Part shown: positions 16,183 to 63,521 of the stretch, piece after piece | Layout: the number at the start of each line of letters is the position of its first letter | Position numbering within the stretch: the stretch's first letter is position 1 | Source of the DNA: Sanghuangporus weigelae | Lineage: Eukaryota; Basidiomycota; Agaricomycetes; Hymenochaetales; Hymenochaetaceae | Length of the DNA stretch: 64,000 bases | Direction: 5' to 3' | NCBI GenBank assembly: GCA_033182465.1 | Contig: CP137328.1 | Coordinates: forward strand, 1,302,001-1,366,000 | Notes under the pieces: model-generated | Told to the model about the DNA's origin: nothing | Databases searched by the model: none | The model's input: only the letters and a program-made list of their open reading frames with translations | Program-made: the position numbers and the translations under genes

Positions 16183-16184
16183 TA

Positions 16185-17268: not shown

Positions 17269-17270
17269 TA

Positions 17271-17550: not shown

Positions 17551-18231
17551 GTCAATATTGTTGTGAGAAAAATCTCTGACAATGATCTTGCTTTACTTGG
17601 GCTATCAGAAGAGTACCCGCATCCAGACCGGATGATTCTTATAGTTCTGCTGGTTCCTCCTCCTCCAGTGCATCCAAGCATTTCCACTGACAATGGAGCT
17701 TTGTTCAGTGAGGACAATTTGATGTGCAAAGTGGGCGACATCATAAAAGTGTCCATGGATGTATTCAGATATAAAGAGGGAGGAGTTTGGGCCCATGTTA
17801 TATCTAAGTTTGAGCAATTGCTCCAGGTAAGCAATCGGATATGTGTTAAGAGACCGCTTACCATGTTATGTCCAGTTCCATGTCTCCACATACGTGGACA
17901 ATGACATTGCTAGAATACCTCAAGCTCAACAAAAGTCTGGTTGATCCGTCAAAGCTATTTGTGCTTGTTCAAAGGACAAGGAGAGTCGTGTACATGGTAA
18001 CTTGATGGGGAAATGTGTCAATTTTTTGAACGTACTGTCATCACTGGAGGCCCAAACCTGGAACTTGACAAAGTTGGTGTGCCGAAGAGCATCGCCATGA
18101 CTCTCACATACCAAGAAAGAGGTCAGTAGGAAGAGCATCTTGATTGACGTGTTGTTAAAAACTGTCTGACAGTGACCTCGTGTACTTATAAGAGCTCGTG
18201 TGGAACAGAACAAGAGAATACCCTGGAGCGC
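17551..18231 (+). pseudogene. RNA polymerase II largest subunit (RPB1) fragment, 5' part
   Basis: Homology starts near 17566 with KISDNDLALLGLSEEY and continues MILIVLLVPPPPVHPSIS and WAHVISKFEQLLQ, followed by a GT..AG intron at 17827-17875. The next exon reads FHVSTYVDNDIARIPQAQQ, then a TGA where RPB1 has Arg (CGA), then [10 protein letters not shown] one-base shift follows before [19 protein letters not shown] and [12 protein letters not shown] second probable intron (near 18121-18170) leads to VYL, a TAA, then ELVWNRTREYPGA. There element C1 interrupts the codon series at the four bases GCGC. Retained introns exclude a processed copy. Stops at former CGA codons point to C-to-T decay. The protein would cover roughly the clamp core before the active site. 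Confidence 0.88.
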
Positions 18232-19006
18232 TGTAGTGCGCCGCACTTGCCTGTACCAGTACATTGGTACAGGCCCCTCAGTACTCTGTACAGTATACCA
18301 TCATGCGGCAACTGCTACACCTCCGCCGCTCCTTATGACTATCCGACCACCGCTCCTTGATTTGCTGCTCGACCAATAGGGCCGCCAACTCCCCTCATTT
18401 GAAAGCAGGTTTGGCCTCTCTCAAACCAGACATCCTTATGCAAGCCTCCAGATAGTCAAGAAAAATGAAGTTACTCCGGGCATCAGTTCAAGCAGACTGG
18501 TGACATCCGTTGGACTGCTGCTACTCCGCGGTGCCAACGTGCCATCACGTCTTCAGTTGCCTCTTTCCGCGTGCCCGGTCTCGCCGCTTTGCATCTCTGG
18601 GCAATCTCCCTAACCCATCTTGGCATCATAGACGGGGTACCCAGACCCTCCAGACTTTCCAAACCGAGTACATTTGGCCAGCCGCGTCTTCTGATATGCG
18701 AGTGCTTGGGACGCTGCAGTGGATGTATCCGCTACAGCGGCGGAAGTATATCAAACCGTATAGCTGATGGAATGTTCGTCGGCTCCTATCAATTGGTTTA
18801 TCCGACGTCGGCTAGAGGTTTTACAAGGTCCCAGGTATCACGTTTCATGCTCATACTATGCCGCTTTGCACGCCGAGTCCATTGTCAGACGCGGCAGCCA
18901 CTAGCGTATTCCTCACTTTAGTATTATTGCCTCCCCTGACGTTTCATATTCGTATGGTGCGACCACTTAGCGATCCGAGCGCGCCCGATGATATGATGTG
19001 CCGCGC

Positions 19007-22000
19007 TATAGTGCACTGGCCCCTCCTGTGCCAGTACACTCATACTATGACTCCCTCCCACTGCAGATACCATATCCCAGTGCTGCCTACACCTCAGAGT
19101 GTGAGGGCATACTCCTACTGCACTCGAGACACCATTTGAGTACGTTTCCACTAATTCCAGCACATGTACTGTACTGCGGCACCCTCCTAAGGCCCAGATC
19201 GATCCACCAATGGCTCTCTGACACTCAGACAGGTCTGCCGACGACTCCTACCCAGCACCAGGCACTATAGGACACATCTCTCAGTGACTACAGGCTGCCG
19301 ATCTTACGATTTACCATACATACAGCCTTGCGGCGACTCTGGGTGCCTCCGAGTCGGCCCCCCATGGCGCCGATCAATGCGGCGGACACTCAGACATCCT
19401 CAGGTACCTTCGCTGACACCTCCTACAGCTTACCAAGCAGTCCCCCATTGCCTAGGGAGCTATATATAGTCATATGTGCTTATATGCCTCATTATGACGT
19501 ATCTGGCGCCGATCCAGCAGTCCCCCGCAGCACAGCCACTCCAGCCACTCATATTAGTCACTAGGGATCGCCCACACTCTGTATTGAGTGCCGCTGATGC
19601 ATCAGACACCTCAGGGACATTGACTGATGCACCCCTTGTCTCATATATGCGATATTAGCCTCCGATCATTGGCTCCGATGTTTCCCAACTTCCCCCCAAT
19701 GTGGTGGCCCCCATTAGACCATGTATGGAAGGTAGGCATGTGGTACATTGGCGTGCCAAGCCCCCGACTTGCGCCGCCGAGCCCAACTCCGCTGGCACCT
19801 GTATTATTTCAGATACTCAATATTTCATGCTATTGGATGCCCCCCTCACATTGCCACTCTCAGATTTCACCTGGGCACTCCGGCAGCGGCCCTTGGCAAC
19901 CCAGATGACTCAGGAGATGTTGTCAGACAGTAGGACATGTCGGCGACAGCAGCAGAGTATATATAGAGCTTATATTAGGTTGGTAGACAAGAGACCATCT
20001 TAAAGAGACCATCTTAGAGGAAGAGAGCATGTACCAGTCCGAGCACCAGAGTTCGAGATATCCCTCACTCTGAGTCTCCCCTCTTGTACTGAGCCTCCCC
20101 CTTGACTATATATTATCCTTGACACCTCCTCTTGCTTGATTCATCATTCTACCTGCCTTCGCTGCCTCTGATACGCCTCGGCCGCCCTGATATTCAGCAA
20201 GCATGTAGAAGCTCAGGATTTAACCCTGAGCTTCCTCCATCCCTCTTGTACCTCGTCGGCACCCCTCTATCTGATGTTGGCGACCCTTCGGTGACCCAGG
20301 CTTCCTATCAGACCCCTCTTCAGCACCCTTTCCATCCTTTCACCCCAGCTTAGTCTATATACTCATCTTATACAGTCCTTTCCTTTCACCTATTGCGTTT
20401 ACGCTACTTCGGTGGAATTGTACAGCCTTCCCCTTGTTCCAGCGCCCCCCTATTTGACGTCGGTGGCTATCCAGCAACACAGGTATAGTACCAGACAACC
20501 CAGAAGTGCCTTCTCCACCCACTTGCTCCATTTCAGCCCTTATATTCATCTCATACGCTCCTGCCGATGTAGACTATCAGACCCTCTTAAGCAGCGGCGA
20601 AGGCGACGGCGTTCGACCACAGAGAGGCGTCGGCGGTGTCAAAGATCGGAGAGGTAAGAAGGGATCCAACTCGTGGCTAGACCTCCTGGACAGCTTGGTG
20701 CCGTGGCAGACAATTTGACCCGGAAGCACTGCTGCCGATCGGGATGCGCGCTCAGTCGTGGGGAGAGCTCAATCGTAAGGGCTATGGTATGATCCGCGTA
20801 TAAAGGGGACGCCGCCGATAATGTACGAGACAGAGCCGCCGACAAGTCAAGATGTCGGCGTCGCGAATAAGCAGTAGAGCAACGGCGCCGTCGAGTCCTG
20901 CGAGCGGCGGCGATTACTAGTAGAGCGACGGTACCGCCGATTACCAGGAGAGCGACGGTGTCGCCGATTACCAGGAGAGCGACGGTGTCGCCGATTGTCA
21001 AAAGGGGGATGGCGCTGCCGATTCCCAGGACCGGGGATAGCTCTGCCGATCACTTGCGCAGTGGCGAGTGAGCACGTGCCCCTGTTATTCCCTTAAACGG
21101 GGGCGGCGTCTTGTGTCGGCACACAATCTTCGGCGGAGGCGATAGAGAGCAAAAGGGCTAATAGAGACGAGAGGAGTGCACTAAGATCTATTCTGAACTA
21201 CTGCTTCTGAACACTACATACATGAGGTCTATATATACTGGGGAATGCTGGGGAAGAGCGTCACAGAGGCGGCGACAGTGATGGTGCGTCACAGACACGC
21301 AATCGGTGCGGACCCGAAGATCGGGGCGCGCCGCGAAGCTGCCAAGACACGAGCGCGCGCTGATCGGGCTGGCGGTGATTGGCGCGGCGCATCATCATCG
21401 GGCGTGCTCGGATCGCTAAGTGGTCGCACCACACGAATATGAAACGTCAGGGGAGGCAATAATACTAAAAGGGGAATACGCGAGTGGCCGCCGCGTCCGA
21501 CAATCGGACTCGGCGCACGAAGCAGCATGGTATGAACATGAAACGTGGTACCTGGGACCTTGTAAAACCACTACCCGGCGTCGGATAAGCCAATCAACAG
21601 GAGCCGACGAATATTCCATCGGCTATACGGTTCGATATCCTTCCGCCGCCGTAGCCGATACATCCGCTGCAACGTTCCCGGCGCCCGCGTATCAGAAAGT
21701 GCGGCTGGCCAAGCATACTCGGTTTGGGAAGTCTTCGAAGGACGGGAGGCGGCGGACGTATTGGTTGAGCCGCGAATCAAGGAGCGGCGGTTTGGAAGGT
21801 CTTAAGGAGCGGCGGAGGTGTAGCGGTCGCCGCACGATGGTATACTGTATGGAGTACTGAGGGGCCTGTACCGACGTACCGGTACAGGCAAGTGCGGCGC
21901 ACTACACCGACCCTGTGTCCGAGTTTCCACCACGTCAGCAGCCTCCTGTGATCCCCCCTTTCGAGCGGCAGCCCTATTAGCTCATTCCTTTCATACTGCG

Positions 22001-22173
22001 GCATCCCTATATCCATCCATTACGTCTCCAACAGTTCCTGGCACCTGCTGGGTAGTGGGGATTTAGAGTCTGATAGCGTCGGCATCTCGTTTTCAGAGAT
22101 TTCTTCTTACATTCAGCACCCTTAGTAGGACAGACATTGGTAGCGCCTTCAGAGACACACACCACCCACTACA
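19007..22173 (+). mobile_element. LTR-like element family B, copy B1 (hosts C2)
   Basis: Starts at a slightly altered TGTAG end followed by TGCACTGGCCC and ends ACCACCCACTACA. Flanks are GCGC on both sides (19003-19006, 22174-22177). Without C2 (20568-21906) it is about 1.8 kb. A TATATATAG box lies near 19950. No protein-coding region; solo-LTR-like. Inserted in the middle of C1. Confidence 0.85.
20568..21906 (-). mobile_element. LTR-like element family C, copy C2
   Basis: On the plus strand it starts TGTAGACTATCAG and ends GGCGCACTACA, flanked by perfect CCGA duplications (20564-20567 and 21907-21910). The uninterrupted equivalent of the insertion site is visible in B copies near 29283. It is 1,339 bp, shorter than C1 and C3, partly because it carries fewer internal tandem repeats; short repeats of about 27 bp occur at 20917-21000. 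TATA box near 21232, pointing left. The perfect duplication makes it one of the younger C insertions. Confidence 0.88.
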
Positions 22174-22996
22174 GCGCCAATCACCGCCAGCCCAATTGGC
22201 GCGTGCCTGTGTCTTGGCAGCTTTGCGCCATGCCCCAATCTTTGGGCCCGCCCCGATTGTGCGCCTGTGACAAGCCATTACCGTCGCCGCCTCTGTTACG
22301 CTCTTCAGCAGTATTCCCCAGTATATATAGACCTCATGTATGTAGTGTCGAGAGTAAGTAGTCCAGAATAGACCCAAGTGCACTCTTCTCCTCTCTGTTA
22401 GTCGCTTTGCTCCCTATCGCCTCCACCGAAGATCACGTGCCGATGCAAGACTCCACTCCCATTTAGGTAATAATAGGGGCACGTGCTTACCCGCCACTGT
22501 GCAAGTGATCGGTGGAGTTATCCCCGGTCCTGGGAGTCGGCAACATCATCACCCTCTTGACAATCAGCGACACTGTCACTCTCCTAGTAATTGCTGACGC
22601 CCGCACAACCCGACAACACTGTCACTCTATTACTTATCAATGACGCCAAGACCTTACAAGCAATCGCCGACCGGGTTCTCTTCGTAGTGATCGGCAACGT
22701 CATCACTCTCTTAGTGATTGGTGACGATGTCACTCTCTTAGTGATCATCAGCATCTCTGTCCCGTGTGCTATTAGTGACACCCCTTCGTACACCAACCGT
22801 GGTCTAGTCTTTACGATTGAGCTCTCCCCATGACTAAGTGCGCATCCCGATCAACAGCAGTGCCTCCGGGTCAAATTGTTCGCCACGGCATCGAATTGTT
22901 CGCCACGGCATCGAGCTGCCCAGGAGGCCTAGCTACGAGTTGGACCCCTTCTTACCTCTCTAATCTTTGACACCGCCGACGCCTCTCTGTGGTTGA

Positions 22997-24459
22997 TGAA
23001 ACTCCTGTGGGCGTTCTGATACCGGACAGGGAATATAAAGTTCGAGGGGCTGCCCTAGAATACCTTTGAGTAGTCAGCAGAGAGTTACACCTAGACCAAA
23101 AGCAAGTGGAAACAAAGGGATAAGGGAATATATGAGAGAAGGGTTGTAAGAGGGCTGAGGAATGCGTGGGAAGCACTCGAGGAATGATTCTGAGGATGGG
23201 CTTCTCCCGAGATTGATGGTGGCGGTGCGAAGGCTAAATTGACTCTCTGGCTCAACTGCGAGCTCTGGACTAAAGCTGACTAACACAAGGCACAAGAACT
23301 AATCTAACTAATGCTACGCTAGTTGAACCACCAACTCGAACGTGACTAATCGACCATGCTAACACACTGGGAAGCGACGGCAGCTGATCTCACTCGTAGT
23401 CTAAAGTGTCGGAATGTGGTGTAATGATTTGAAACGTGATATGATGGACGGAGGGACTGTACGGTGATGGAAAAGGATAATATGGTGTCCTTTTCCAACG
23501 ACAGTGGAGAAGGGAAGGTCTTGCGAGACCGAAAGCATGTGGCACACTAGGTAACGGGATTACGGGCGAAACCAGCAAAACAGATAGGAACACGTAAGGA
23601 GGTTTTGATACGGATGATAGAGACAAGAGGAGTTCTTTACACGAACACGGCAAACTGTACAAACATATGAATGGCTCTGCTGCGAAGAGAGATCACCGAT
23701 CGACTGTACAGAATGCAAAATATCGTATATTAGACTTTAGAGACGAGAGAGTCCACTACGAACAAGTAGAACTCGAAGCTGGGGGACTTGAGACAATCTG
23801 AGAACTGCTCCACTCCAACTAAGCTGTCCCCCTCACTACAAGAGTCGTGCTATATTTATACTAAACGTCTAATGCTGAGCCTCCCATCAGTCAGAGAACA
23901 TAAGTCATAAGAAAAAGAGGAACGCATATCACTATCTACAAAGGAGAGGGGTGCATATGAATGGTTAAGGGACACATAAAGCAGAAAGAAACAATACTAA
24001 GTATGGTTGGAATGAGAGCATAAAGAAATAAAAGGGATGCATATAGAAAGGTGAGATCATAAGCGAAGCCTTCAGAACCGGGTGTCTTTGAGCAGAACGA
24101 GTCGGAACTTGGGGAAAGGACTTGGAAAGACCTCGGCTAGCCTTACAGGGCAAATCTGCGACATTTTGAATAGGAGAGGGACTGTGGACGATGCTGCAGG
24201 GTCAAATCTCTTTGTCAGGAGTATGGATCCGGAATCCAGAGACTTGTGATTGACGTGTGTAGGATCGTCGCATGATTCTTCCGCCGTGTCTGATATGATG
24301 GCCGATTGCGGAACGGTGCACGTGCCATTTAGACTATGGCATTATTGCTAAGTCCACTCGCTCCAGCGAAACCAGTCGGAACCGGGCGAAACCAGTCGGA
24401 ACACCGTGGAACTCGTCGTAACGACTTTGTACATTCCCAAGCTTTAGTCTTACTCTTCA
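22997..24459 (+). mobile_element. LTR-like element family D, copy D1
   Basis: Starts TGAAACTCCTGTGGG and ends AGTCTTACTCTTCA, flanked by TTGA and TCGA. 1,463 bp, no coding sequence. A TATAAAG box occurs near 23034. Strongly similar along its length to D2 (38464-39949). Inserted near the 3' end of C1. Solo-LTR-like. Confidence 0.85.
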
Positions 24460-24496
24460 TCGAATGCCGTTGCTCAAGAGGGTCTGATAGTCTACA

Positions 24497-27420: not shown

Positions 27421-30400
27421 TAGGGAGTAGGCCCGGGGTTATACCGGTTCAATCCTTTTGCCTAAGCAGCGGTGTGTTGTGCAGAGGTGATCTTATCTAC
27501 CCACGTCTGGCTGTACCACGCAGTCCCTTACTAGCCTTCCTAGTTGCTGTCCGAGTTAGGGATGCTTTCAGATACGAGGTAACAGTAAAGCAGATTGGGA
27601 TTTCCAAGAGGCGTGATAGTATAAAGCACACAGTAATAGCTTGCTGTAGGGCAAGCTTTACACCAGTGTGTTAAGAGTATCAAAAGATGGGGAAATGAGG
27701 GCCTAATCCTACAACTATTTATGCTCCCAGATATTCCATTTTCCGTTGTAGTGCACTGGCCCCTCCTGTGCCAGTACACTCATACTATGACTCCATCCCA
27801 CTGCAGATACCATATCCCAGTGCCGCCTACACCTCAGAGTGTGAGGGCATACTCCTACTACACTCATGACACCATTTGAGCACGTTTCTAACAATTCTAG
27901 CACATGTACTGTACTGTAGCACCCTCCTAAGGCCCAGATCAATCCGCCGATGGCTCTCTGACACTCAGACAGGTCTGCTGACAACTCCTACCCAGCACCA
28001 GGCACTATAGGACACATCTCTCAGTGACTACAGGCTGCCAATCTTACGATTTACCGTATATACAGCCTTGAGGCGACTCTGGGTGCCTCCGAGTCGGCCC
28101 CCCATGGAGCCGATCAATGTGGCGGACACTCAGACATCCTCAGGTACCTTCGCCGACACCTCCTACAGCTTACCAAGCAGTCCCCCATTGCCTAGGGAGC
28201 TACATATAGTCATATGTGCTTATATGCCTCATTACGACATATCTGGCGCCGATCCAGCAGTCCCCCGCAGCACCACCACTCCAGCCACTCATATTAGTCA
28301 CTAGGGATCGCCCACACTCTGTATTGAGTGCCGCTGATGCATCGGACACCTCAAGAACACTGACTGATGCGCCCCTTGTCTCATATATGCGATATTAGCC
28401 TCCGATCATTGGCTCCGATGTTTCCCAACTTCCCCCCAATGTGGTGGCCCCCATTAGACCATGTATGGAAGGTAGGCATGTGGTACATTGGTGTGCCAAG
28501 CTGCCGACTCACGCCGCCAAGCCCAACTCTGCTGGCGCCTGCATTATTGCAGATACTCGATATTTTATGCTATTGGATGCCTCCCTTACGTTGCTGCTCT
28601 CAGATTTCACCTGGGTGCTCCGGCAGCAGCCCTTGGTGACCCAGATGACTCAGGAGATGTTGTCAGACAGTAGGATATGTTGGCGACAGCAGCAGAATAT
28701 ATATAGAGCTTATATTAGGTTGGTAGAGAAGAAAATCATCTGAGAGAGCATGTACCAGACCAAGCGCCGGAGTTCGAGATATCCCTCACTCTGAGTCTTC
28801 CCTCTTGTACTGAGCCTCCCCCTTGACTATATATTACCCTTGACATCTCCTCTTGCTTGATTCATCATTCTACTTGCCTTCGCCGCCTCTGATATGCCTC
28901 GGCCGCTCTGACATTCAGCGAGTGTGTTGAAGCTTGGGATTTAACCCTGAGCTTCCTCTACCCCTCTTGTACCTCGTCGGCGCCCCTTTATTTGACATTG
29001 GCAACCCTTTGGTGACCCAGGCTTCCTATCAGACCCCTCTTCAGCACCCTTTCTATCCTTTCACCCCAGCTTAGTCTATTTACTCATCTTATACAGTCCT
29101 TTCCTTTCACCTGTTGCATTTACACTACTTCGGTAGATTTGTGCAGCCTTCCCCTTGTTCCAGCGCCCCCCTATTTGACATCGGCGGCTATCCAGCAACA
29201 CAGGTATAGTACCAGATGACCCAGCAGCGCCTTCTCCACCCACTTGCTCCATTTCAGCCCTTATATTCATCTCATATGCTCCTGCCAACCCTGTGTCCGA
29301 GTTTCCACTACGTCAGCAGCCTCCTGTGATCCCCCCTTTCGAGCGGCGGCCCTATTAGCCTATCCCTTTCATACTTCGGCATCCCTAAACCCCTCCATCA
29401 CGTCTCCGACGGTTCCTGGATCTGCTAGGTAGTGGGGATTTAGAGTCTGATAGCGTCAGCATCTCATTTTTGGAGGTTTCTTCATACATTCAGCACCCTT
29501 AGTAGGACGGACATTGGCAGCGCCTTCAGAGACACACACCACCCACTACACCGTCCTATTTCTTACTCATCCTATCTCCACTTTTCTCCACTTTTCTCCA
29601 CCATTACATCTGTTCCTTTGTCACCCTGCTGCGCTTCGCTCCACTTTGCTCCAATCTTTGTAAGGTCGTCTCCACTATGACAGAATTCTGTGGAGTTGCT
29701 GACTGAGACAATAGAGGTGGTGTTCCGATGTGGAATGCTCCACTGTCAGTACTCCATAATGATGTCATTGTTATTATTGAGTGGCATCCTTGCTCTTGGA
29801 GCGATGTAGGCTGCTCGGTATGTGATTTTTCGGAATTTATCTTGAAGTCCAGTGAGTGTAAGCATAACTCGCACGTCAGTGTTAAGGTGTCGGGTCGGTA
29901 TAGCGTATGGTCCAAGGCATATCATGAACTGCATAAGCTCTGCTGGTGGGTTCTGCTGGGTTCTGATGACTAGCCATGCTTTGCCTTCGTATCATATGTC
30001 TCGAATGTAATGCCATATCCTTCATTGTATAAGGAGTTGTAATTGCTTGGTCTCCAGGTTTGCATCTCTCGGTAAATAGAGGTTTGCTTGTATCGTAGAT
30101 GCTGGACATGGTGTGTGTAACTCTGGTCTATACCATCCAATCATTCTCCAAGTTATTGGGTTCGCAGTTCATGGGGTTCGAGTTGTAATTGTGAGTTCCT
30201 CTCATTTCTTGGGTACTACTGGATTTGGTGGATTGGAATGTATTGTATCTTGAAGGTGTCGCTCGGTTTCGATGTGACAGTCACGTGTACCAGCGGTTGA
30301 CATGCATATTATGTAGTATACCTCATAAAGGACCATGTAAACTCGTGCACAGACTTGACAGTGCTGAAATGCCAGTGAGGTCTCCATAAACCTTATCAGC

Positions 30401-33716: not shown

Positions 33717-33857
33717 GGTGTAGACTATCAGACCCTCTTAAGCAGCGGCGAAGGCGGCTGCGTTCGACCACAGGGAGGCATTGGTGATGTCAAAGATCGG
33801 AGAGGTAAGAAAGGGTGCAACTCGTGGCTAGGCCTCCTAGACAGCTCAATGCCGCGG

Positions 33858-35340
33858 TGTCGTGCTGAGAGTGGACTTGTGAATAAATTCAACAGTGCTC
33901 TCACAGAGTCAACCGGTCTATTTGTCTAGACAGGTAGTCTTCCCTGTTGTTCGTTTAGCTATGGGCAACTAAGTCGTAGATTGTGTGCAATACTCTTGGC
34001 CGTTGGGTAGGTAATGAAAGTTGATATGAATGATTTGGGGGTGACAACGTATGATAAGGGTGATTCGCTGATAAGAATCCTGAACTCAAACTTAATATGT
34101 ACTGGGTTCTAGAAGTAGCCCGGTAGCAGTTCTAGCAACCTCGCTAATTGTTATCAGTCCTAGTAGCAGCGCTCTTTGCAGTACTAGCAACCACACTTAT
34201 CCTTAACAGGTACTAACAGCAAACACCGAAGTAGTGCTAGCTACCTGCTCAATGATGTATCCGAGTGATATACTGATGTCAAATAATTCACAACACTAAT
34301 ATTCAGCAAGAGTGGGTACAGACAAGCACCTGACTTGAGTGCACCACGCTAGACAATAACAAACACTTCTGTGTGCTTGCAAATCTAGGGTACTAAATAA
34401 TAATGCAGCAATAGTAATTAACACCTTAGCTTTATTACCAACTGCCTAATTTATACAGCAGTAACAAAAACTAATACTTCACTTAGACTTAAGATACAAA
34501 GTAACAAAGTGGAGAGAGATGGTGGTGGTTAGAGGTTAAGTTGCTCTCTCTCTTGACGCACTTGCTTGCTCGTCTTATATAGGCTGAGCTTACTAAGCAT
34601 TACCAAGCATTACTAAGCAAGGCTAAGAAAATAAACTAAAATAGAACCTAAATGCACTTGCTTATATAAGAAATTAAATTGAACTTCCTAATATAGAATC
34701 TGGTTTCCGTCTCGGCCTTTCATGCCTCAAACCCAAATCTCATATTGCTACATTCTGGTGTGCATTATCGGTCTGCTTCTGGTAAATAAGCGGTTTGAAT
34801 ACTTCTGAACGGGGACCTTAAAGAAGCTCGTCGGACCCTATACAGCTTAGACCAATCCAGTATAAATTATATATGAGGGACGGCGCAGTCTTCCTGATTT
34901 TGTATCTTCTCAAAATACCTTCTCGCAGCCCTTTTGCATGCTTTTTACACATGTGGTGTCGCATGAAGAAGGTGTTGAGGTTGGTTCACAGGCCTCATCG
35001 GATCACTATCGAACAGCTGCAGTGAGTGCCTGCACTGACATCCAAGTTGGTTTATCCTAATGCAGTATTAGAGTCATGATCGAGATGACTGTTACGACTA
35101 GGGTGGAACCACTCTTCTTAGTAGTTTCACATTGCTATCATCCAATGCTCATCTGGTAAGGACTCTCTTTGTTATGTTTATATTTCTTTTCCTAATTGCA
35201 CTCATAGAGCACCTATGAACGAGTTGACTTTGAGTTTCAAGAATTTATATCTCACATCCTGTAGAGTTATTGCTTGATGATAATGACCGATCCTGTGTTA
35301 TTTCTGCTTGTTTATGTCCAAGCAACTTTGTAGCCTGATA
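33858..35340 (-). mobile_element. LTR-like element family E
   Basis: Single copy of 1,483 bp inserted in C3, starting TGTCGTGCTGAGAG and ending GTAGCCTGATA on the plus strand, flanks GCGG (33854-33857) and GTGG (35341-35344). A TATA box reading leftward (CTATATAAG near 34574-34582) precedes a GA-rich leader. Same architecture as B, C and D but no sequence resemblance. No coding sequence. Confidence 0.7.
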
Positions 35341-35550
35341 GTGGTGAACGATTTGACCCAGAAGCACTGCCACCAATCGGAATGGACGCTCAGTTGTGGG
35401 GAAGAGCTCAATTGTAAAGACTAGAACACGGTCGGTGTACAGAGGGGTGCCGCTGAGGGCGCATAGGACAGAGGCGCTGACGATCACTAAGAGATTGGCG
35501 TCATTGTCAATCTCCACGGCGAGAGCTCAGTCAGCGATTGAGTGTAAGGT

Positions 35551-35880
35551 CTCGGCGTCATGAATAAGTAATAGAGTGACGGTGTCGACGGGTTGCGCGG
35601 GCGTGGGCGATCACCAGGGGAGTGACATCCTCGCCGATCACTAGGAGGAGAACTTGGTTGGTGATCGCTTATACAGTCTCGGCGTCGTGGATAAGTAGTA
35701 GAGCGACGGCATCATTGGGTTGCGAACGTCGGCAATCACCAGAAGAGTGACGTCCTCGCTGATCACTAGGAAGAGAACTCGGTCGGCGATCACTTGTAAG
35801 GTCTCGGCGTTGTGGATAAGTAGTAGAGCGATGGCGTCGTCGGGTTGCGCGGGTGTCGGCGATCACCAGGAGAACGATGG
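35551..35880. repeat. Tandem repeat (~126 bp x 2.6) inside C3
   Basis: Units start at 35551, 35678 and 35803, each opening with CTCGGCGT and ATAAGTA, and contain GGGTTGCG and GATCAC motifs. C1 has about one unit (22590-22700) and C2 a reduced one. Confidence 0.85.
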
Positions 35881-36278
35881 TGTCACCGATTGTCAAGAGA
35901 GCAATAGTGTTGCTGACTCTCAGGACCCAGGGTATCCCCGCTGATCACCTGCGCAGTGGCGGGGAAGCACATGCCTCTAATATTACCTAAATGGGAGCGG
36001 AGTCTTGGGTCAGTGCACGGTCCTTGGCGGAGATGATAGGGAGCAAAGCGACTAACAGAGAGAAGAGGAGTGCACTCGAATCTATTCTGGACTTCTTCTG
36101 GACACTACATACATGAGGTCTATATATACTGGGTAATACTGGTGACGAGTATAACAGAGGCGGCGACGGTAATAGCACATCACAGGCGCATGATCGGGGC
36201 GGGCCCGAAGATCGGGGCACAGCGCAAAGCTGCCAAGACACGGGTGCACGCCAATTGGGTTGGCAGTGATTGGCGCGG

Positions 36279-43570: not shown

Positions 43571-46500
43571 CTTATTTCAATCCTAGCATCCTGCACATCT
43601 CCTGCACCTTCACTCTACTAAGTGCCTTGCATGATGTCAGCTGACATGGTCTGAGTAGGCAAGTAATGCACATTAATATGACCAGCCTCTACAACATCTC
43701 TCAACCAGTAGAAGCGCAGATCTAGGTGTTTCATGCGTCCATGATGCTCAGGATTGTTTGCCACAGACAGAGCAGACTGGTTATCAATGTACAGGGAAGA
43801 AGGTGCATCAAACTTGTAGCCAAACTCTGTAAACAGATTTCTAAGCCACATAATCTCTTGTCCTGCACTGACAGCAGCAATGTACTCTGCTTCAGTGGTA
43901 GATAGAGTGACAAAGGGCTGCAACTTGCTAGCCCAGCTGATAGTACCAGTTCCCATCTTAACAACCATCCCACTTGTGGACTGTCTGTTATCCTCATTTC
44001 CTCCATGGTCAGCATCACAGAAGGTAGTGAACAGCTCAGAGGACTTAGGATCAGGTGCATAAGTCAGCCTGAAGTCCTTTGTGCCCTGTAGATAGCGACA
44101 TAAATGCATTGCTGCCTTCCAATGAGCTGGACCAGGATTGGAACTAAAGCGTCCCAAGACACCAACTGCATAAGCAATGTCTGGCCTAGTAGCTATAGCC
44201 AGATACATAAGTGCACCAATCAATTGCTTGTAGAGCACCTGCTTCATGTACTCAGTTTCTGCAGGAGTCTTAGAAGCCATGTCCTTGCTGAGCTTCTACT
44301 CAGGGAGAGGAGTAGTAACAGTGCCACAGTTGCTCATGCTGAAGCGCTCTAGCACATCAATAGTGTACTATCTCTGTGACAGACTGATAGAGTGCTTGGA
44401 GTGGTCTCTCTCAATGTGGACTCTTAACAGGAATGAGGTCGGGCCCAACTCATGCAGCTTGAAGTGCTTAGCCAGTTCATCTCTGACAGACTCATACTGC
44501 TGCTTAGACTTTGCAGCAATAGTCATGTCATCAACATAGACTGGAATGATGATGCGCACTTCATCTCTGCTGTATACCCAAATGCTGTAATCGCAGCGCA
44601 CTAACTTGAAGCCCATGTTCTTCATCACTGAATCAAGTTTCTTGTGCCATTGATGGCCAGCCTGCTTAAGGCCATAAATTGACTTGATCAGCTTGAGAAC
44701 AAATACAGGGCCAAAGTAGTCCTCAAATCCTTCAGGCTGGCTCATATAGACATCATGCTCCATCTCACCATTGAGGAAAGCAGTAGAGATGTCAATACTG
44801 TACAGCTCAAGGTCTTCAAATGCAGCCAATGCCAGGATAGCTCTAAGTGCAGCCTATTTAGCTGTAGGAGCAAACACTTGAGAGAACTCAAGTCTTGGCT
44901 GCTGTGAGAAGCCCTTGGCCACCAGCCTTGCCTTGTACCTGTCTACAGAGCCATCTGCTTTGCGCTTGAGCTTGAACACTCATCTGCATCCAATAGACTT
45001 TCTGCCAGAAGGCAGTCTGACTGACTCAAATGTGCCATTCTCAATCAGACTGATAAATTCCTCCATAACTGCTTTCTCCCAGAGGTCTGCATCAGGACGT
45101 CCTTTGATGTCCTTCCACTGATAGGGTTCAGGACTGATGTGTTGCACATCTTGTGCAGAGAACACATGCTCAGCGCAATTAGATAACTGGAATGCATATT
45201 CCAGAGCATCTTTATAAGATAGATAAATGTCCTCTAGTCCTGCATTAGCACTAAAATCTATTAGGCCAGCAAACATTAGTGCTTCGGCTTGCAACTCCTC
45301 TTCTGACATGATGTCCAGTTCATCAGGTGAGTCACTGTCTATGTCAACATCCTGCTTTGGCTGCTCTACAACATCTGGCTGAGCTGTAGAGACAGTATCA
45401 GAAGCAGTGTCAGGTGCAGTGTTAGATACAGTTGGCTCTGCTGAGTTGAAGTTGAAGCGCTGTAGTGAAATAGGGGAGCCTGACACACATCTGGGAAGGC
45501 GCTGTCCAACATAGTCCACATCCCACCAGCCAGTGGTATAACGTCTAATAGGTCTCCACATTGGATCTGACCACCAGGGAGAAGCAGGCCTTTGTTTCTT
45601 TGAGGCCTGCTCCGATAGCAGTGGTGAAGTAGTGTGTTCACGCTTTGGTGGATGAATAGCTGATGAAGGAGGATGATGTGGAGGACTATGTAAAGGAGGA
45701 CTAGGTGATGGATTAGGTAGAGGACTAGGTGTAGTGTAAGTGTAGGCATAGGAGAATCTGCTAGATCATCTGCACAGGAGCAGGTGGAGGAGGAGGAGCT
45801 GGTAGAACATCAATAGCATCCTTTACTCCCCCCTGTTCTGGCAGGTCTTCTGTCTGTAGAGGCATATTCACACTCAGGTCAACTGGGTTTCTAGATGTAC
45901 CAGGGAAGACTCTCTCATCAAATTGAGCAGAGTCACTAATGACTTCCTTCCTAGTAAGTGGATTCCAGAACAACCAGCCTTTATAGTTAGAGGGGTAGCC
46001 TAGAAACACACATTTCTATGTGTGGGACTGTAGCTGCTTGTGTTGATCTTTCTTCACAAGCACATAGGAAGTCCATCCAAATACACGCAAGTGAGAGACA
46101 TCTGGCTTTGACTAGAACCAGAGCTCATAGGGTGTACTGGTAGACACTGCAAAGGTGGGAGAGCGGTTGTACACATGCACAAATGCCACTGCATCCCACC
46201 AGAAGCTAGAGGGCAGGTGTGCTTTATTAAGCATAGTAGTAATGCTCTCTGCAAGTGTCCTGTTGGCATGCACTGCAACACCATTCTGATGAGGTTCATC
46301 TCTAATAGTGTGCTGCCTATGAATGCCTGCAATGATGCAGAACTGGTCCCATTCCTTAGACATATACTCTCCACCTTTATCATCACGAGTGGCCTTGATC
46401 TTCACTCCTAACTGGTTCTCTGCATAGGCCTTAAATTGCTTAAAGACAGCAAATGCATCACTCTTCTTCTTCAATGGAAGAACAGCCCAGTAGCGGCTGT

Positions 46501-46763
46501 AATCATCAATGAAGATAATCCAATATTTGAAGTCATGTCTAGATTGGTCAGGCAATAGACTATAAACATTAGAGTGAACCAATTGGAGGAGACCAGAAGC
46601 TCTGTGAGATGCAAGTTTGGAGACATTAGACCTGTGCTGCTTGCCAGCAATGCAAGATTCACAGATAGGATCTAGAGTGCTCTTAGACTTGATAACCATT
46701 CCCTTGACTAACTCCTCAGTTATCAATCTGTTTACATCACTATGATTAAGGTGTGCAAAGCAC

Positions 46764-48565
46764 TGTAGTGCACTGGCTCCTCCTGTGCCAGTACACTCAT
46801 ACTATGACTCCCTCCTACTACAGATACCATATCCCAGTGCCGCCTACACCTCAGAGTGTGAGGGCATACTCCTACTGCACTCAAGACACCATTTGAGCAC
46901 ATTTCCACCAATTCCAGCACATGTACTGTACTGCAGCGCCCTCCTAAGGCCCAGATTGATCCACCAATGGCTCTCCTACACTCAGACAGGTCTGCTGACG
47001 ACTCCTACCCAGCACCAGGCACTATAGGACACATCCCTGAGTGACTACAGGCTGCCAATCTTACGATTTACCATATATACAGCCTTGAGGTGACTCTGGG
47101 TGCCTCCGAGTTGGCCCCCCATGGTGCCGATTGATGCGGCGGACATTCAGACATCCTCAGGTACCTTTGCCGACACCTCCTACAGCTTACCAAGCAGTCC
47201 CCCATTGCCTAGGGAGCTACATATAGTCATATGTGCTTATATGCCTCATTACGACGTATCTGGCGCCGATCCAGCAGTCCCCTGCAGCACCGCCACTCCA
47301 ACCACTCATATTAGTCACTAGAGATTGCCCACACTCTGTATTGAGTGCCACCAACGCATCAGACACCTCAGGAACACTGACTGATGCGCCCCTTGTCTCA
47401 TATATACAATATTAGCCTCCGATCATCGGCTCCGACATTTCCCAACTTCCCCGCAATGTGGCGGCCCCCATTAGACCATGTATAAAAGGTAGGCATGTGG
47501 TACATTGGCGTGCCAAGCCCCCGACTTGCACCGCCAAGCTCAACTCCGCTGGCGCCTGTATTATTGCAGATACTTGATATTTCATGCTATTGGATGCCCC
47601 CTTCACATTGCCGCTCTCAGATTTCACCTGGGCACTCCGGCAGCGGCCCTTGGCAACCCAGATGACTCAGGAGATGTTGTCAGACAGTAGGACATGTTGG
47701 CAACAGCAGTAGAGTATATATAGAGCTTAGTTCATCTTAGAAAGAGACAATCATCTGAGAGAGCATGTACTAGACCGAGCGCCGGAGTTCGAGATATCCC
47801 TCACTCTGAGTCTCCCCTCATGTACTGAGCCTCCCCCTTGACTATATATTATCCTTGACACCTCCTCTTGCTTGATTCATTGTTCTACCTGCCTTGGCCG
47901 CCTCTGATACACCTTGGCCGCTCTGATATTCAGCGAGTGTGTAGAAGCTCGGGATTTAACCCTGAGCTTCCTCCACCTCTCTTGTACCTCGTCGGCACCC
48001 CTCTATCTGACGTCGGCGACCCTTCAGCGACCCAGGCTTCCTATCAGACTCCTCTGCACCGTCCTTTCCAGCCTTTCACTCCAGTTTATTCCATATATTG
48101 ATCTTATATGGTCTTTTCCTTTCATCTATCGCATTTACGCTACTTTGGCGGATTCGTGCAGCCTCCCCCTCATTCCTGCTTGACCTATTTGACATCGGCG
48201 GCTATCCAGCGATACAGGCATCATACCAGACGACCCAGTGGCGCCTTCTCCACCCACTTGCTCCAGTTCAGCCCTTATATTTATCTTATACGGTCCTGCT
48301 GACCCTGTATCTGAGTTTCCACCACGTCGGCAGCCTCCTGTGATCCCCCCTTTTGAGCGGTGGCCCTATTAGCTCATTCCTTTCATACTTCGGCATCCCT
48401 AGACCCATCCATCACGTCTCTGACGGTCCCTGGCATCTGCTGGGTAGTGGGGATTTAGAGTCTAATAGCATCGACATCTTATTTTTGGAGGTTTCTTCAT
48501 ACATTCAGCACCCTTAGTAGGACGGACATTGGTAGCACCTTCAGAGACACACACCACCCACTACA
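46764..48565 (+). mobile_element. LTR-like element family B, copy B4
   Basis: 1,802 bp inserted in copia 1; flanks GCAC (46760-46763) and GCGC (48566-48569). The empty site is visible in copia 3 near 57440 (reverse complement). TATATATAG box near 47715. Shows that B was active after this copia insertion. Confidence 0.9.
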
Positions 48566-51410
48566 GCGCCTGTGCCAAAGTGTAGTATCAAGTGGACAGG
48601 TGCTGGTGAATACAGCATAAGCAATGGTAGGAACAATGTGGCCATTGAGATTTGCTGCATTGTTAGAGGTGATGTTTGCAGTGAAAAGAACTATTCCATG
48701 ATGATGAAAAAGCATCTTGTTATGGTGAATGGTGACAACATATAATTTGGAACGAGTCAAATACAGGACTGAGATTAGATTGTTTCTAAGATCAGGAACA
48801 TGGAGTACACGCTCAAATTCAAGCAACTGTCCAGGTTTGCCATTAACTACAGGCTGAAAGCGCACTGTGCCTATGCCAACTGAATAAATAACTTGATTGT
48901 TGGCCAAACGAATAGGGGTGTAGTTGTTGAGTATTGTGAACCAATGACGATGTGGGGTCATATGGCAAGTGACACCTGTGTCAGCAATCCAGTCAGTTCT
49001 TGTATCTGGGATAAGGGGTGAATGGGGATTGGTGAAGTCAAGAGCACTTGCATTGCTAGCAAATTTAGCAGATTTAGCAGATTCATCTTGTTGAGCAACA
49101 TGGGCCTTCCTGCCCTTCCTCCTCTTCTCTTCTCTGTTCCTCTTAGCCCTGACATGTGCATCCTTAGAGGCTGCCTGTTTCATATAGCAGTTCTCCTCTG
49201 TGTGCTTAAGAATGCCACAGAAGGTGCAAGTGATACCTTGAGAGGAGATAGGCTTCGCAGCACTACTAGTGGGGATGTGAACATGGCCTGGGGCTGAAGC
49301 TGGATGCACTCTTGACGGTTCTGCTGCTCTTAGGCAAATGCCTCCTTGAGGTTATTCCACTTGAATTTCTTCATGAGCAGCACTGCAGAGCGAAAGGAAG
49401 CATAGTCTTCAGGAAGAGAACAAATCAGACATGCACAGGCAAGCTCATTCTCAAACTCCTCAAGTTTGAGGGTGCTAGAACGAGTGCTTCTGATCTTGTG
49501 CAATGCCAGCTCAACCCTGCTCACCAGATTGGTGAGGGACTCATCTTCCTTCTTGGTGATGTTGAAGAACTCATCATAGGCATTAAAGCGCGCAGCTGGG
49601 TTGTCCTGCTCATTGATCTTCTGAAGCTCAGTCCACATCTTGACTGAATCATCCATGTTGTCCTGCATCATAATCTGCATACTATGCTCAATTCTCTGAT
49701 AGATCAGGCCAGCAGCTTGCTCAGCCTTCTCTTCCCAGAGCTGGACAGCCTTATCTGGAGCACTAGCTTAGCTTCCTGACCAGAGAGAGGTCAGGCGCCA
49801 CAACTTCTTGACTTGAAGTGCAGCACGCATATCATGCTTCCAGATAGAGTAATTGCTGTCATTGAGCTTGGTGATAGTGGATAGCGTCTCAGTGGTGACA
49901 GGATCAGATATGATAGTTGGAATGAGGTGTGGATGAGAGTGGACAGATGATACTTAGAAGAAATAAGCAGTGAGGGAGCAATGAGGGAGAGAGCGCTAAC
50001 AAATTTATGCCTGGAGATGACAGATCAATGCCAACCAGTGCAGTCTTCTACAGTCACTGAAGTATACACAGATTTGCCACAAGACAGTGCTGGTCTATTG
50101 GTCTGCTAAGACCCCACAGGCACCGCTAACTGAGAGAGGCTCTAGGCTTAAGTAGACACTCAAAGAGTGACTACAACCAGCAAACTAAGGCCGGGCAGGC
50201 AAGCTTCACAGTCTGTAGGCTAGGCTGATCCAACAACAGTGATAGAGCCACACACCAATTAACACCAGAGCTGCCAGACACAAAATGCAGCGCAGAGAGG
50301 GATCGGATTAGCGGATCAGCGGCAATCAACGATTTCTGTCGGCACAAGAAAAGCCCACAGCGCAGTTAAACTGTGGCCGCTCAAGCTGAAACTTGGTGGA
50401 GGTATGCGCAGGTATGGGAGCCGTATGCACACCAAAGGGTGTCCTGATCGGATCAGTGGTTGCCGAGAAAATTGAAAGTTGCCAAAATAGGGTGCAAAAC
50501 AAAGATCCTTCAATAAGTTGGCGCATTCTTGACCGATTTGGCTGAAACTTCGCGACAAAGGACGTGGAAATAGGCCAAATAGACGAGCCAAATTTTGTGA
50601 GAAACAGATCAACGGTTCACCCGGGATAGGCAATGCAACTTTGAAAATAGCCAAAAGTGATAGGGCTATAGCGGTGTCAAATCACGACAGATCAGGATGA
50701 AACTCGGTAGGACAGTAGGCGTATAAGGACCGAGTAAGCGTGCCAAAGGGCGTCGAAAACGACTGGACGGTTGTGGAGCAATCAAGTGGCGGAGTTTTGG
50801 GGAGATTTGGCACTGATAAAGGCCAAAGAAGGCAGAGGGCTCTAGGACTGTGGAAACTGCACAGAAGGGTGCAGAAGATAATGGGAACACTAGGAACACA
50901 CCAAAAGGCCAGTCCAGAATACCAAAAGCTTCTCTGACAGCAGCAGCAGCTCTCTAAACCCAAAAACTTAAAAATGCAGCAGTGTAGACAGCTAGAGCTC
51001 AAGGCTCATAACCTGTTAGATCACACAAATCTAGCAAGGGACCACTGAGTCCAGTGGTGAGTACACTTGATGTAGAGTACTTACCAATAGACTGTGCCGC
51101 TTTTACAGAAGATTACATAAGCATCACATAATCAAGAAAGCGGATAGAATATAAACAGAACAATAAATAAAGAATAGTAACAGTGTCAGGATCACACTTC
51201 TAACACTATGTGCACAGATATAATTGTTGTCAGCGGATGAAAGCTCTAAGAGTGGCAAGAGCAAAGGTTAGTTTTGCACCCTAATAAGATGCCAGATGCA
51301 CCATTGCAGATTGTTACGGTCGACCTGATCGGAGAGCTACCGGAGTCGAACAGGTTCAATGCCATATATGTGGTAGTTAATTGTTTTAGCAAACAGATCT
51401 ATGCAATACC

Positions 51411-60603: not shown

Positions 60604-60630
60604 AGGAAGAAGTGTCAGATCAGGGGGGAG

Positions 60631-60883
60631 TGTTAGAAGTGTGATTCTGACACTGTTAGTATTTTGTTGTTTCTTATTCTGTTTATATTGTTTGTTATGT
60701 CCGCTTTCTTGATCATGTGATGCTTATGTAATCTTCTGTAAAAGCGGCACAGTCCATTGGTGAGTACCCTACATCAAGTGTACTCACCACTGGACTCAGG
60801 TATGTAGTTAGACTGTTAATATAACATCAAGTGTACTCACCACTGGACTCAGTGGTCCATTGCTGGACTTGTGTGATCTAACA
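60631..60883 (+). repeat. 3' LTR of copia copy 4
   Basis: TGTTAGAAGTG to GATCTAACA, nearly identical to the 5' LTR. Confidence 0.9.
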
Positions 60884-63521
60884 CATCACAGGCGCACAAT
60901 TAAGGTGGACCCAGAGATCAGTGCACATTGTGAAGCTGTCAAGGCACAGGCCCGCACCAATCGGGCTGACAGTGATTGGCACAGCACACTGTAGTGCACT
61001 GGCCCCTCCTGTGCCAGCATACTCATACTATGACTCCCTCCGACTGCAGATACCATATCCTAGTGCCAGCTACACCTCAGAGTGTGAGGGCATACTCCTA
61101 CTGCACTCAAGACACCATTTGAGCACATTTCCACCAATTCCAGCACATGTACTGTACTGCAGTGCCCTCCTAAGGCCCAGATCGATCCGCCGATGGCTCT
61201 CTGACACCCAGACAGGTCTGCCAACAACTCCTACCTAGCACCAGACACTATAGAACACATCCCTCAGTGAATACAGGCTGTCGATCTTACGATTTACTGT
61301 ATGCGTCGACTCTGGATGCCTCTAAGTTGGCCCCCCATAGTGCCAATTGGTGCAGTGGACACTCAGACATCCTCAGGCACCCTTGCCAACGCCTCCTACA
61401 GCTTACCAAGCAGTCTCCCATTGCCTAGGGAGCTATATATTATCATATGTGCTTACATGCCTCATTACAACATATCTGCCACCGGTCTAGCAGTTCCCTG
61501 CAGCACTGCTGCTCTGGCCACTCATATTAGTTACTAAGGATCGCCCACACTCTGTATTGAGTGCCGCTGATGCATTGGACACCTCAGGAACACTGACTGA
61601 TACGCCCCTTGTCTTATATACACAATATTAGCCTCCGATCACCGGCTCTAATGTTTCCTGACTTCCCCCTAATGTGGCGGCCCCCATTAGACCTTGTATA
61701 AAAGGTAGGTATGTGGTACATCAGCGTACCAAGCTGCCGACTCGCACTGCCAAGCCCAACTCTGCTGGTGCCTGTATTATTGCAGATACTCAATATTCCA
61801 TGCTATTGAATGCCCTCCTCACATTGCCACTTGCAGATTTCACCTGGGCGCTCCGGCAGCAGCCCTTGGTGACCCAGATGACTCAGGAGATGTTGTCAGA
61901 CAGTAGGACATGTCATAGATAGCAGTAGAGTATATATAGAGCTTATATTAGGTTGGTAGATGACAGCTTAGAAGGTATCAGAGCATGTACCAGTCTGAGC
62001 GCCAGAGTTTGAGATATCACTCACTCTGAGTCTCCCCTCATGTACTGAGCCTCCCCCTTTGACTATATACTATCCTTGACATCTCCTCTTGTTTGATTCA
62101 CCATTCTACTTGCCTTCGCCACCTCTGATATGGCTCTACCGCTCTGACATCTATTGCGTTTATGCTACATCAGCAGATTCATGTGGTGTCCTGCTCAGTC
62201 TGGCACCCATCTATCCGACGTTGGCAACCCTTCGGCGACCCAGGCTTCCTATCAGACTCCTCTGCAGCACCCTTTCCGGCCTTTCATTCTAGCTTAGTCC
62301 ATATATTTATCTTGTACGGTCCTTTCCTTCTATCTATCATGTTTACGCTACGTTGGCAGATTCATGTGGCCTTCCCCTTGTTCCTGTGCCCCTCTATTTG
62401 ACGTTGGTGACCCTTTGGCGACCTAGGCATCCTATCAGATGACCCATCAGCGCCTTCTCTACCTACTTGCTCGATTTTAGCCCTTACATTCACTTTATAC
62501 ACTCCTTGCGACCCCGTATCCAATCTTATATCACATTGGCAGCTTTCTGTGATCCCCCCTTTTGAGTGGTGGCCTTAGTAGCTCATTCCTTTTATACTTC
62601 GGCATCTTTATACCCCTCCATCATGTCTCCGATGGTTCCTGGCATCTGCTGGGTAGTGGGGATTTAGAGTCTAATAGTGTTGGCATCTTATTTTTGGAGG
62701 TTTCTTCATACATTCAGCACCCTTAGTAGGATGGACATCAGTAGCACCTTCAGAGACACACAACACCCACTACAACATCATATTATCAGGCACACTCAGA
62801 TTGCTAAGGGGTCGCACTATACAAATATGAAACGCCAGGGGAAGTAATAATACTAAAATGGAGAATATGTGAATGGCTGCTACATCTGACACCAGACCCA
62901 GCATGCGAAGTGGTATGATATGAACATGAAATGTGGTACCTGAGACCCTGTAAGACCTTTAACTGACAACGGGTAAGCCAATCAACAAGAGGCAACATAT
63001 TTTCCACCAGTGATATGGTCCAATATACTTCTGCCGCTGTAGCAGATACGTCCACTACAGCATCCCAAGTGCCCACGTGTCAGAAGACGCAGCTGGCCAA
63101 GCATACTCGGTTTGAGAAGTCTGGAAGGCTCAGATATGTTGCATACAATCTCAAGATGGATTGGAGGGGTTGTGCTGAGATGTGTTACAGCGGCGTCAGG
63201 CATACGGAAAGAGGCCACTGAGAAAGTGACAACCCATTGGCACAGTGGTCTGACAGATATCACCGGGCTACTTGAGCTAATGCCTGGAGTAACTTCATTT
63301 TTCTTGACTATCTGGAGGTTGGCCTAAGAGTGCCTGGTTTAAGAGAGGCTAAACCCACTTTCAAAAGAGGGGAGGTGGCAGACCTATTGCTCAAGTGGTG
63401 AATTAAGAAGCGGCATTGGAAAGTCTGAGGAGCAATGGAGGTGTAGTGGTTGCCGTACAATAGTATACTGTACAAGGCACTGAGGGGCCTATACTGGTAC
63501 GGGCAAGTGCAGTGCACTACA
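60884..63521 (-). mobile_element. LTR-like element family C, copy C5 (partial, hosts B5)
   Basis: C sequence from the middle of the element (CATCACAGGCGC) to its normal GTGCACTACA end at 63521, interrupted by B5 (60990-62774). The other part of this copy is missing; the copia LTR begins exactly where it stops. More diverged than C1-C3 by eye. Confidence 0.78.
60990..62774 (+). mobile_element. LTR-like element family B, copy B5
   Basis: 1,785 bp; flanks ACAC (60986-60989) and ACAT (62775-62778), the only B insertion in the window without a CG-centred duplication. Opposite orientation relative to its C host compared with B1 and B3, but inserted in the same short stretch of C. Diverged, no coding sequence. 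Confidence 0.85.

What the first reader, a model, noticed from the sequence alone, without database searches (positions are those of the whole stretch)
18228..62778. Four LTR-like families share a CG-centred 4-bp target site (NCGN)
Seen directly: complete flanks of families B, C, D and E are GCGC/GCAC (C1), GCGC/GCGC (B1), CCGA/CCGA (C2), TTGA/TCGA (D1), CCGT/CCGT (B in F), CCGG/CTGA (C3), GCGG/GTGG (E), GCGG/GCGG (B3), CCGC/CCGC (D2), GCAC/GCGC (B4). Ten of eleven have or imply NCGN; only B5 (ACAC/ACAT) does not. The families are unlike in sequence but share TG..CA-type ends, an internal TATA box, 1.3-1.9 kb length and no genes. Inference: one integrase type with a CpG-centred tetranucleotide preference mobilised all four, either as solo LTRs or as non-coding elements driven in trans. 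Ginger-type transposons, with gypsy-like integrases and short TGTN-type ends, are a comparison to make.
Basis: partly seen in the sequence, partly recalled or inferred. Interest (0 to 1): 0.75.

Follow-up and report, generated by a model that had tools for sequence, protein, structure and literature searches.

The report
LTR-like insertions at CG-centred sites
In this stretch of what looks like a fungal genome, several kinds of mobile DNA without recognisable genes have inserted, mostly into short sites centred on the letters CG and often into one another, which points to an unusually choosy insertion enzyme that was not itself found here.

Summary
All eleven complete insertions listed (B x5, C x3, D x2, E x1) have 4-bp flanking repeats; 10 of 11 have CG at the centre of at least one copy, 5 of 11 in both. 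Local CG content would give at most about 1 of 11 (P about 1e-10). Nine of 11 have an uninterrupted paralogue in the window; these show CG for six, not for D2, E and B5. All seven flank mismatches are transitions, as CpG decay predicts. New: three independent B insertions hit the same 7 bp of C, and B and C match at 22 to 24 of their first 33 bp. Best explanation: solo LTRs of retrotransposons whose integrase prefers CG-centred tetranucleotides. Ginger1 transposons share a CCGG/CCGT target, but their terminal inverted repeats are 40 to 270 bp (PMC2836005), against 4 to 7 bp in B, C and D. The window's Copia element has a non-CG 5-bp target, CTATG. No integrase or two-LTR copy of these families was seen, and no genome is held, so a genome-wide logo and a single shared integrase remain untested.

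The parts
18232..24496 (+). C1, family C element (1627 bp without nested B1 and D1), flanks GCGC/GCAC
   Evidence: no paralogous empty site found
19007..22173 (+). B1, family B element inserted in C1 (1824 bp without nested C2), flanks GCGC/GCGC
   Evidence: empty site GCGC in C2 (match 21528-21232)
20568..21906 (-). C2, uninterrupted family C element (1339 bp) inserted in B1, flanks CCGA/CCGA
   Evidence: sites in the four other complete B copies read CCAA, CCGA, CTGA, GCGA
22997..24459 (+). D1, family D element (1463 bp) inserted in C1, flanks TTGA/TCGA (strand arbitrary)
   Evidence: empty sites TCGA in C2 and C3
27110..27420 (+). B6, 5' part of an incomplete family B copy, left flank CTGG; a further part lies at 30736-31436 after a 3.3-kb insertion that contains B2
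27747..29550 (+). B2, family B element (1804 bp), flanks CCGT/CCGT
   Evidence: no paralogous empty site found
33719..40351 (-). C3, family C element (1871 bp without nested E, B3, D2), flanks CCGG/CTGA, inserted in a tRNA-bearing repeat
   Evidence: empty site CCGG in the second copy of that repeat (match 52813-52632)
33858..35340 (.). E, LTR-like element (1483 bp), single copy in the window, inserted in C3, flanks GCGG/GTGG, ends TGTC...GATA
   Evidence: empty sites GTGG in C2 and C1
36279..38059 (-). B3, family B element (1781 bp) inserted in C3, flanks GCGG/GCGG
   Evidence: empty site GCGG in C2
38464..39949 (+). D2, family D element (1486 bp) inserted in C3, flanks CCGC/CCGC (strand arbitrary)
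   Evidence: paralogous sites TTGC (C1) and TTGT (C4)
46764..48565 (+). B4, family B element (1802 bp) inserted in a Copia element, flanks GCAC/GCGC
   Evidence: empty sites GCGC and GTGC in two other Copia copies
60990..62774 (+). B5, family B element (1785 bp) inserted in C4, flanks ACAC/ACAT (the exception)
   Evidence: paralogous site GCAT in C2
62775..63521 (-). C4, part of an incomplete family C copy, outer flank CCAT (63522-63525); a further stretch matching C lies at 60879-60980; the far end was not found
43204..51205 (-). Copia element that hosts B4; 5-bp flanks CTATG/CTATG, a non-CG comparison inside the window

Best explanation
B, C, D and E are solo LTRs (or LTR-only remnants) of long-LTR retrotransposons, most simply of Gypsy-like type, whose integrase inserts with a 4-bp stagger centred on a CG step. 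Full copies integrated, and recombination between their two 1.3 to 1.9 kb LTRs later removed the internal coding region. Shown: exact ends, 4-bp duplication, CG centre, empty sites, nesting order, very short inverted ends. Inferred: the LTR identity, the Gypsy-like type, loss of internal parts by recombination, that the integrase itself (not a tether) reads the CG, and that B and C, perhaps all four, use closely related integrases.
For: 4-bp duplications with CG at the centre of at least one copy in 10 of 11; empty paralogous sites with a single target copy for 9 of 11, CG-centred for 6 of those 9; ends TG..CA or one transition from it; inverted ends of only 7 (B), 5 (C) and 4 (D) bp; similar TATA strings near mid-element in B2 (about position 950 of 1804) and C2 (about 670 of 1339); B2 and C1 agree at 24 of their first 33 bases, more than any of 3187 offset controls; no Pfam domain in five contiguous open frames that touch B and C. 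Precedents: ZAM, whose integrase is specific for CGCGCg (PMC2527525, passages), and GC-rich central dinucleotides in 4-bp TSDs of plant LTR elements (PMC6911290, passages).
Against: No copy with two LTRs, primer-binding site, polypurine tract or integrase was seen in the window; 11 of 11 complete copies are 'solo'. TATA-like strings lie on both strands in all four families, so they prove little. The Pfam result is weak: three frames of the Copia region in the same call also gave no match, B, D and E frames were hardly scanned, and the unnested C3 has a 317-codon stop-free frame that was not scanned whole. E ends GATA. The empty sites of E, D2 and B5 do not show CG. No genome was available to see internal regions.
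Confidence: 0.75

Rival explanations
1. Non-autonomous DNA transposons moved by a Ginger1-like (Gypsy-integrase-related) transposase in trans.
For: Ginger1 has 4-bp TSDs CCGG (75%) or CCGT/ACGG (24%) and TGTNR ends (PMC2836005, passages); here C3 has CCGG and B2 CCGT, and B and C begin TGTAG.
Against: Ginger1 TIRs are 40 to 270 bp; here 7, 5 and 4 bp in B, C and D, and a search of the 300-bp ends of five copies (B2, B4, C2, D2, E) gave nothing beyond 9 to 10 bp away from the ends. D begins TGAAA, not TGTNR. Targets GCGC, GCGG, CCGC, CCGA and TCGA lie outside the Ginger1 set. That paper reports Ginger1 only from four animal species.
Confidence: 0.12
2. LTR-derived elements that lack an internal region from the start, or have only a minimal one (TRIM or LARD-like), integrated in trans by another LTR retrotransposon.
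For: 11 of 11 complete copies have no internal region; trans-mobilised TRIMs with LTRs are known in fungi (Helenus, PMC10886601, passages).
Against: A single LTR has no primer-binding site or polypurine tract between two LTRs, so it cannot be reverse-transcribed in the usual way (established knowledge); solo formation explains the same data without a new mechanism.
Confidence: 0.08
3. The CG centre is chance, selection of favourable cases, or a by-product of CpG-rich hosts.
For: Found after the fact in one window; C hosts are CG-rich (5.9 to 7.3% CG steps); E, D2 and B5 lack CG in their empty sites.
Against: All complete copies of the four families that the self-comparison showed were counted; the control uses each host's own CG frequency; B4, C3 and C1 sit in CG-poor hosts (0.9, 1.6 and 1.8%); neighbouring offsets show no such excess. 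The Copia element in the same window shows none (CTATG).
Confidence: 0.03

Closest known systems
ZAM, LTR retrotransposon of Drosophila (CGCGCg-specific integrase; PMC2527525, passages)
   Same: An LTR element whose integrase selects a short CG-rich palindromic target; the C stretch hit by B1 and B3 contains CGCGC.
   Different: Only that stretch contains CGCGC; the other targets are looser, NCGN. Different host; no integrase known for the present elements.
Ginger1 DNA transposons (PMC2836005, passages)
   Same: 4-bp TSD with central CG (CCGG, CCGT/ACGG); TGTNR-type ends resembling B and C.
   Different: TIRs 40 to 270 bp, transposase-coding, reported there from animals only; here 4 to 7 bp inverted ends in B, C, D and a wider NCGN target.
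Plant LTR retrotransposons with 4-bp TSDs (PMC6911290, passages)
   Same: GC-rich central dinucleotide in 4-bp TSDs; nesting in other elements.
   Different: There an average preference over many families; here a CG centre in 10 of 11 insertions by flanks.
Helenus tRNA-bearing TRIMs of fungi (PMC10886601, passages)
   Same: Relevant only to the repeat that C3 interrupts: tRNA-like insert and 5-bp duplication.
   Different: Not the B to E elements; target there GATCC, 5 bp, not CG-centred.

Membership tests
Solo LTR of an LTR retrotransposon | TG..CA (or near) ends with short inverted repeats | tested here: met
   B TGTAGTG..CACTACA, C TGTAG..CTACA, D TGAA..TTCA; E TGTC..GATA and B1 TATAG.. are one transition away
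Solo LTR of an LTR retrotransposon | 4 to 6 bp target site duplication | tested here: met
   4 bp in 11 of 11 by flanks, 6 of them with one or two mismatches, all transitions; empty paralogous sites for 9 of 11
Solo LTR of an LTR retrotransposon | Same sequence found twice around a gag-pol internal region elsewhere in the genome | not testable with these tools
   no genome held; no such copy seen in the window's self-comparison
Solo LTR of an LTR retrotransposon | Promoter (TATA) inside the repeat | tested here: inconclusive
   TATA-like strings in all four families, but on both strands; those of B and C resemble each other
Ginger1 DNA transposon | TIRs of about 40 to 270 bp | tested here: not met
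   4 to 7 bp in B, C, D; none in E; no long inverted match between the 300-bp ends of five copies
Ginger1 DNA transposon | TSD CCGG or CCGT/ACGG | tested here: not met
   2 of 11 (C3 CCGG, B2 CCGT); others GCGC, GCGG/CCGC, CCGA, TCGA and so on
Ginger1 DNA transposon | Gypsy-integrase-like transposase gene | tested here: inconclusive
   no Pfam match in five open frames touching B and C, a weak test; a trans-acting source elsewhere is not excluded
ZAM-like specific integrase element | Target CGCGCg | tested here: not met
   CGCGC (either strand) within 6 bp of the TSD in 2 of 11 (B1 and B3, the same stretch of C); CGCG also at E in one flank version; absent at the other eight
Copia element of the window as driver | Same TSD length and sequence preference | tested here: not met
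   one Copia copy with clean flanks, 43204-51205, has 5-bp CTATG/CTATG

The most novel reading that the evidence does not exclude
A fungal LTR-retrotransposon lineage carries an integrase that reads a CG step, perhaps a methylated one, and so steers new copies into CpG-dense, methylated older transposons, chiefly into the LTRs of its own relatives; the target then decays by deamination, which hides the preference in old copies. The B hotspot in C (three independent hits within 7 bp) would be one such preferred site.
Probability: 0.12. Interest if true: 0.8.

Novelty: new variant of a known kind. Interest (0 to 1): 0.5.

Why it matters
Most LTR integrases are thought to have only weak sequence preference (recalled; ZAM is described as an exception in PMC2527525). 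A strong CG centre shared by several long-LTR families would be a natural case for asking how an integrase reads DNA sequence, whether methylation matters, and whether such a preference makes retrotransposons nest in one another rather than in genes. It also warns that target duplications in CpG-depleting genomes must be read with deamination in mind.

Tried and rejected
Ginger1 membership was considered and set aside on TIR length. Chance and host-composition effects were tested and disfavoured. The Copia of the window as driver was set aside on its CTATG duplication. The remnant that I read as Gypsy, starting at 31439, has left flank AGAG, which is not CG-centred, but its right end was not found, so that is weak. 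That B1 and B3 are one insertion copied with its host C was rejected: their targets are 2 bp apart and B1 is closest to B2 (92.7%), B3 to B4 (92.6%), not to each other (91.0%). Searches for exact family ends in IMG/VR (B start; C end; D start) and for the B end in GTDB contigs found 0 matches; the Copia polyprotein found no confirmed relative in either collection (3 and 12 pattern matches, none confirmed). Six literature searches aimed at a CG-centred target in fungal or other LTR elements; in the listings I saw (29 showed 15 of 128 papers, 30 showed 15 of 34) no title or abstract start reports one for a fungal LTR element. Most listed papers were not opened, so this is not proof of absence. 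Papers seen as passages only: PMC2836005, PMC2527525, PMC6911290, PMC10045372, PMC12810828, PMC10886601; the others as search listings.
Full report
The window is repeat-rich DNA, 47.4% GC, with CpG at 0.64 and CpA/TpG at 1.23 and 1.24 of expectation. Of seven open frames scanned with Pfam, three matched: a Copia polyprotein, a copper amine oxidase and a saccharopine dehydrogenase C-terminal domain. I infer a fungus, probably a basidiomycete; this rests on recall and gene content, and no genome is held.

Elements. A self-comparison and exact end positions give eleven complete insertions: C1 18232-24496, B1 19007-22173, C2 20568-21906, D1 22997-24459, B2 27747-29550, C3 33719-40351, E 33858-35340, B3 36279-38059, D2 38464-39949, B4 46764-48565, B5 60990-62774. 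C1 holds B1 and D1; B1 holds C2; C3 holds E, B3 and D2; B4 lies in a Copia element; B5 lies in an incomplete C copy (C4). Without nested inserts B copies are 1.78 to 1.82 kb, C copies 1.34 to 1.87 kb, D copies 1.46 and 1.49 kb, and E 1.48 kb. Five contiguous open frames touching B and C gave no Pfam match at E 0.1; the other three proteins in that call are from the Copia region and gave none either, so the test is weak. The longest stop-free frames are 90 to 142 codons in B, 95 to 100 in D, 67 in E and 146 to 317 in complete C copies; the 317-codon frame of unnested C3 was not scanned whole.

Targets. CG is central in at least one flank in 10 of 11, in both in 5 of 11. Seven bases differ between paired flanks, in six insertions, and all are transitions. 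Paralogous uninterrupted sites were found for 9 of 11: B1 GCGC; C2 CCGA, GCGA, CCAA and CTGA in the four other complete B copies; D1 TCGA twice; C3 CCGG; B3 GCGG; B4 GCGC and GTGC; E GTGG twice; D2 TTGC and TTGT; B5 GCAT. So the empty sites show CG for B1, C2, D1, C3, B3 and B4 (6 of 9), do not show it for D2 (though both its flanks do), speak against it for E (its CG is in one flank only), and leave B5 an exception. C3 is the most useful: its ragged CCGG/CTGA pair is explained by a second copy of the repeat it sits in, which reads CCGGTCACCTG where C3's right flank reads CTGATTACCTG, three transitions away.

Chance. Using each host's own CG frequency, doubled as an upper bound because two flanks are inspected, 1.02 of 11 would show CG in either flank; 10 were seen (P = 9e-11). 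For both flanks 0.51 expected, 5 seen (P = 6e-5). The hosts were delimited by me, for C1, B2, C3 and B5 only approximately. Within 9 bp on either side no other offset exceeds 2 of 11, against 8 and 7 of 11 at the centre. The choice of families and motif after the fact weakens these figures; I do not think it can remove them.

Hotspot. In the coordinates of C, B1, B3 and B5 are inserted within 7 bp of one another, in the stretch ATGCGCCGCGCC (positions read; C2 position 515 onward). They are independent: targets differ in position, B5 has the opposite relative orientation, and B1 and B3 are not each other's nearest relatives. Three random CG sites of C2 fall within 7 bp with probability 3e-4, three uniform sites with 1e-4; the first figure does not strictly fit B5, whose site is not CG. 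The site is not exceptional in CG density (3 per 20 bp, reached in 42% of windows), so something besides CG may contribute. The stretch contains CGCGC at B1 and B3, the core of the ZAM target.

Relatedness and ends. B and C agree at 22 to 24 of their first 33 bases in the three copy pairs compared, above all offset controls where I looked (0 of 3187 for B2 and for B4 against C1, 0 of 2611 for B2 against C2). D and E show at most 15 of 33 against B2 (24 of 2859 and 17 of 2899 controls as good) and 17 of 33 for C1 against reversed E, without a control for that orientation. Inverted ends are 7 bp (B), 5 bp (C), 4 bp (D); E has none beyond a single T, or four if its GATA end was once GACA, which is inference. 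A search of the 300-bp ends of five copies gave only isolated 9 to 10 bp matches. B and C carry similar TATA strings in mid-element, but TATA-like strings lie on both strands in all four families. Differences among copies are mostly transitions: 1638 of 2048 (B, 10 pairs), 610 of 757 (C1 to C3, 3 pairs; C4 left out), 106 of 142 (D, 1 pair); those in CpG context number 567, 268 and 49.

Mechanism. The most likely reading is solo LTRs left by long-LTR retrotransposons whose integrase cuts with a 4-bp stagger around a CG step. Established knowledge: LTR integrases join TG..CA ends with a stagger of a few bases, and recombination between LTRs leaves one LTR with the original duplication. Shown here are the ends, stagger, CG centre and nesting; inferred are the LTR nature, loss of the internal region, and the integrase as reader of CG. 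One Copia copy next door uses CTATG, so this is not a property of the region or of every integrase in the genome.

Comparison. Ginger1 transposons share a CG-centred 4-bp target and TGTNR ends but have 40 to 270 bp TIRs (PMC2836005, passages). ZAM shows that an LTR integrase can itself be strongly CG-selective (PMC2527525, passages). Plant LTR elements with 4-bp TSDs have GC-rich central dinucleotides (PMC6911290, passages). The present set is therefore a sharper case of a known kind of behaviour, in families that I could not match to a named one (no repeat library was at hand).

Limits. One window, eleven insertions, no genome, no integrase. The statement that one integrase type moved all four families stays an inference, better founded for B and C than for D and E.

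Noticed in passing
33533-33718 continued at 40352-40378, and 52641-52849 (minus): A repeat of about 210 bp starting TGTTAGGATT, containing a tRNA-like sequence (tRNA-Thr and tRNA-Ile by ARAGORN; Rfam RF00005), flanked by GATCC/GATCC in one copy. It resembles the tRNA-bearing Helenus LTRs of fungi (PMC10886601, passages), though it ends AATA rather than CA; it accounts for both apparent tRNA genes of the window.
   Followed up: partly
19007, 36279-38059 and 60990, in C1, C3 and C4: Three independent family B insertions within 7 bp of one site in family C.
   Followed up: yes
27421-30735: Insertion that splits B6, flanked by ATTTACTAT on both sides (9 bp), without inverted ends evident by eye; contains B2.
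   Followed up: partly
16178-17275 and 25753-26852: Two fold-back elements with inverted arms of 526 and 527 bp and 46 bp between the arms.
   Followed up: no
54658-60883: Copia element with two near-identical LTRs (99.2%) and a 1049-codon open frame with gag and integrase domains, but no matching flanks (ATTCC/CATCA), suggesting recombination after insertion.
   Followed up: partly
31439-33530, 40379-43203 and 51206-51409: Remnant that I read by eye as a Gypsy element (zinc knuckle, protease-like and integrase-like stretches), broken up by C3 and the Copia elements; not confirmed by a family search (the one frame scanned, 40515-41534, had no Pfam match).
   Followed up: partly
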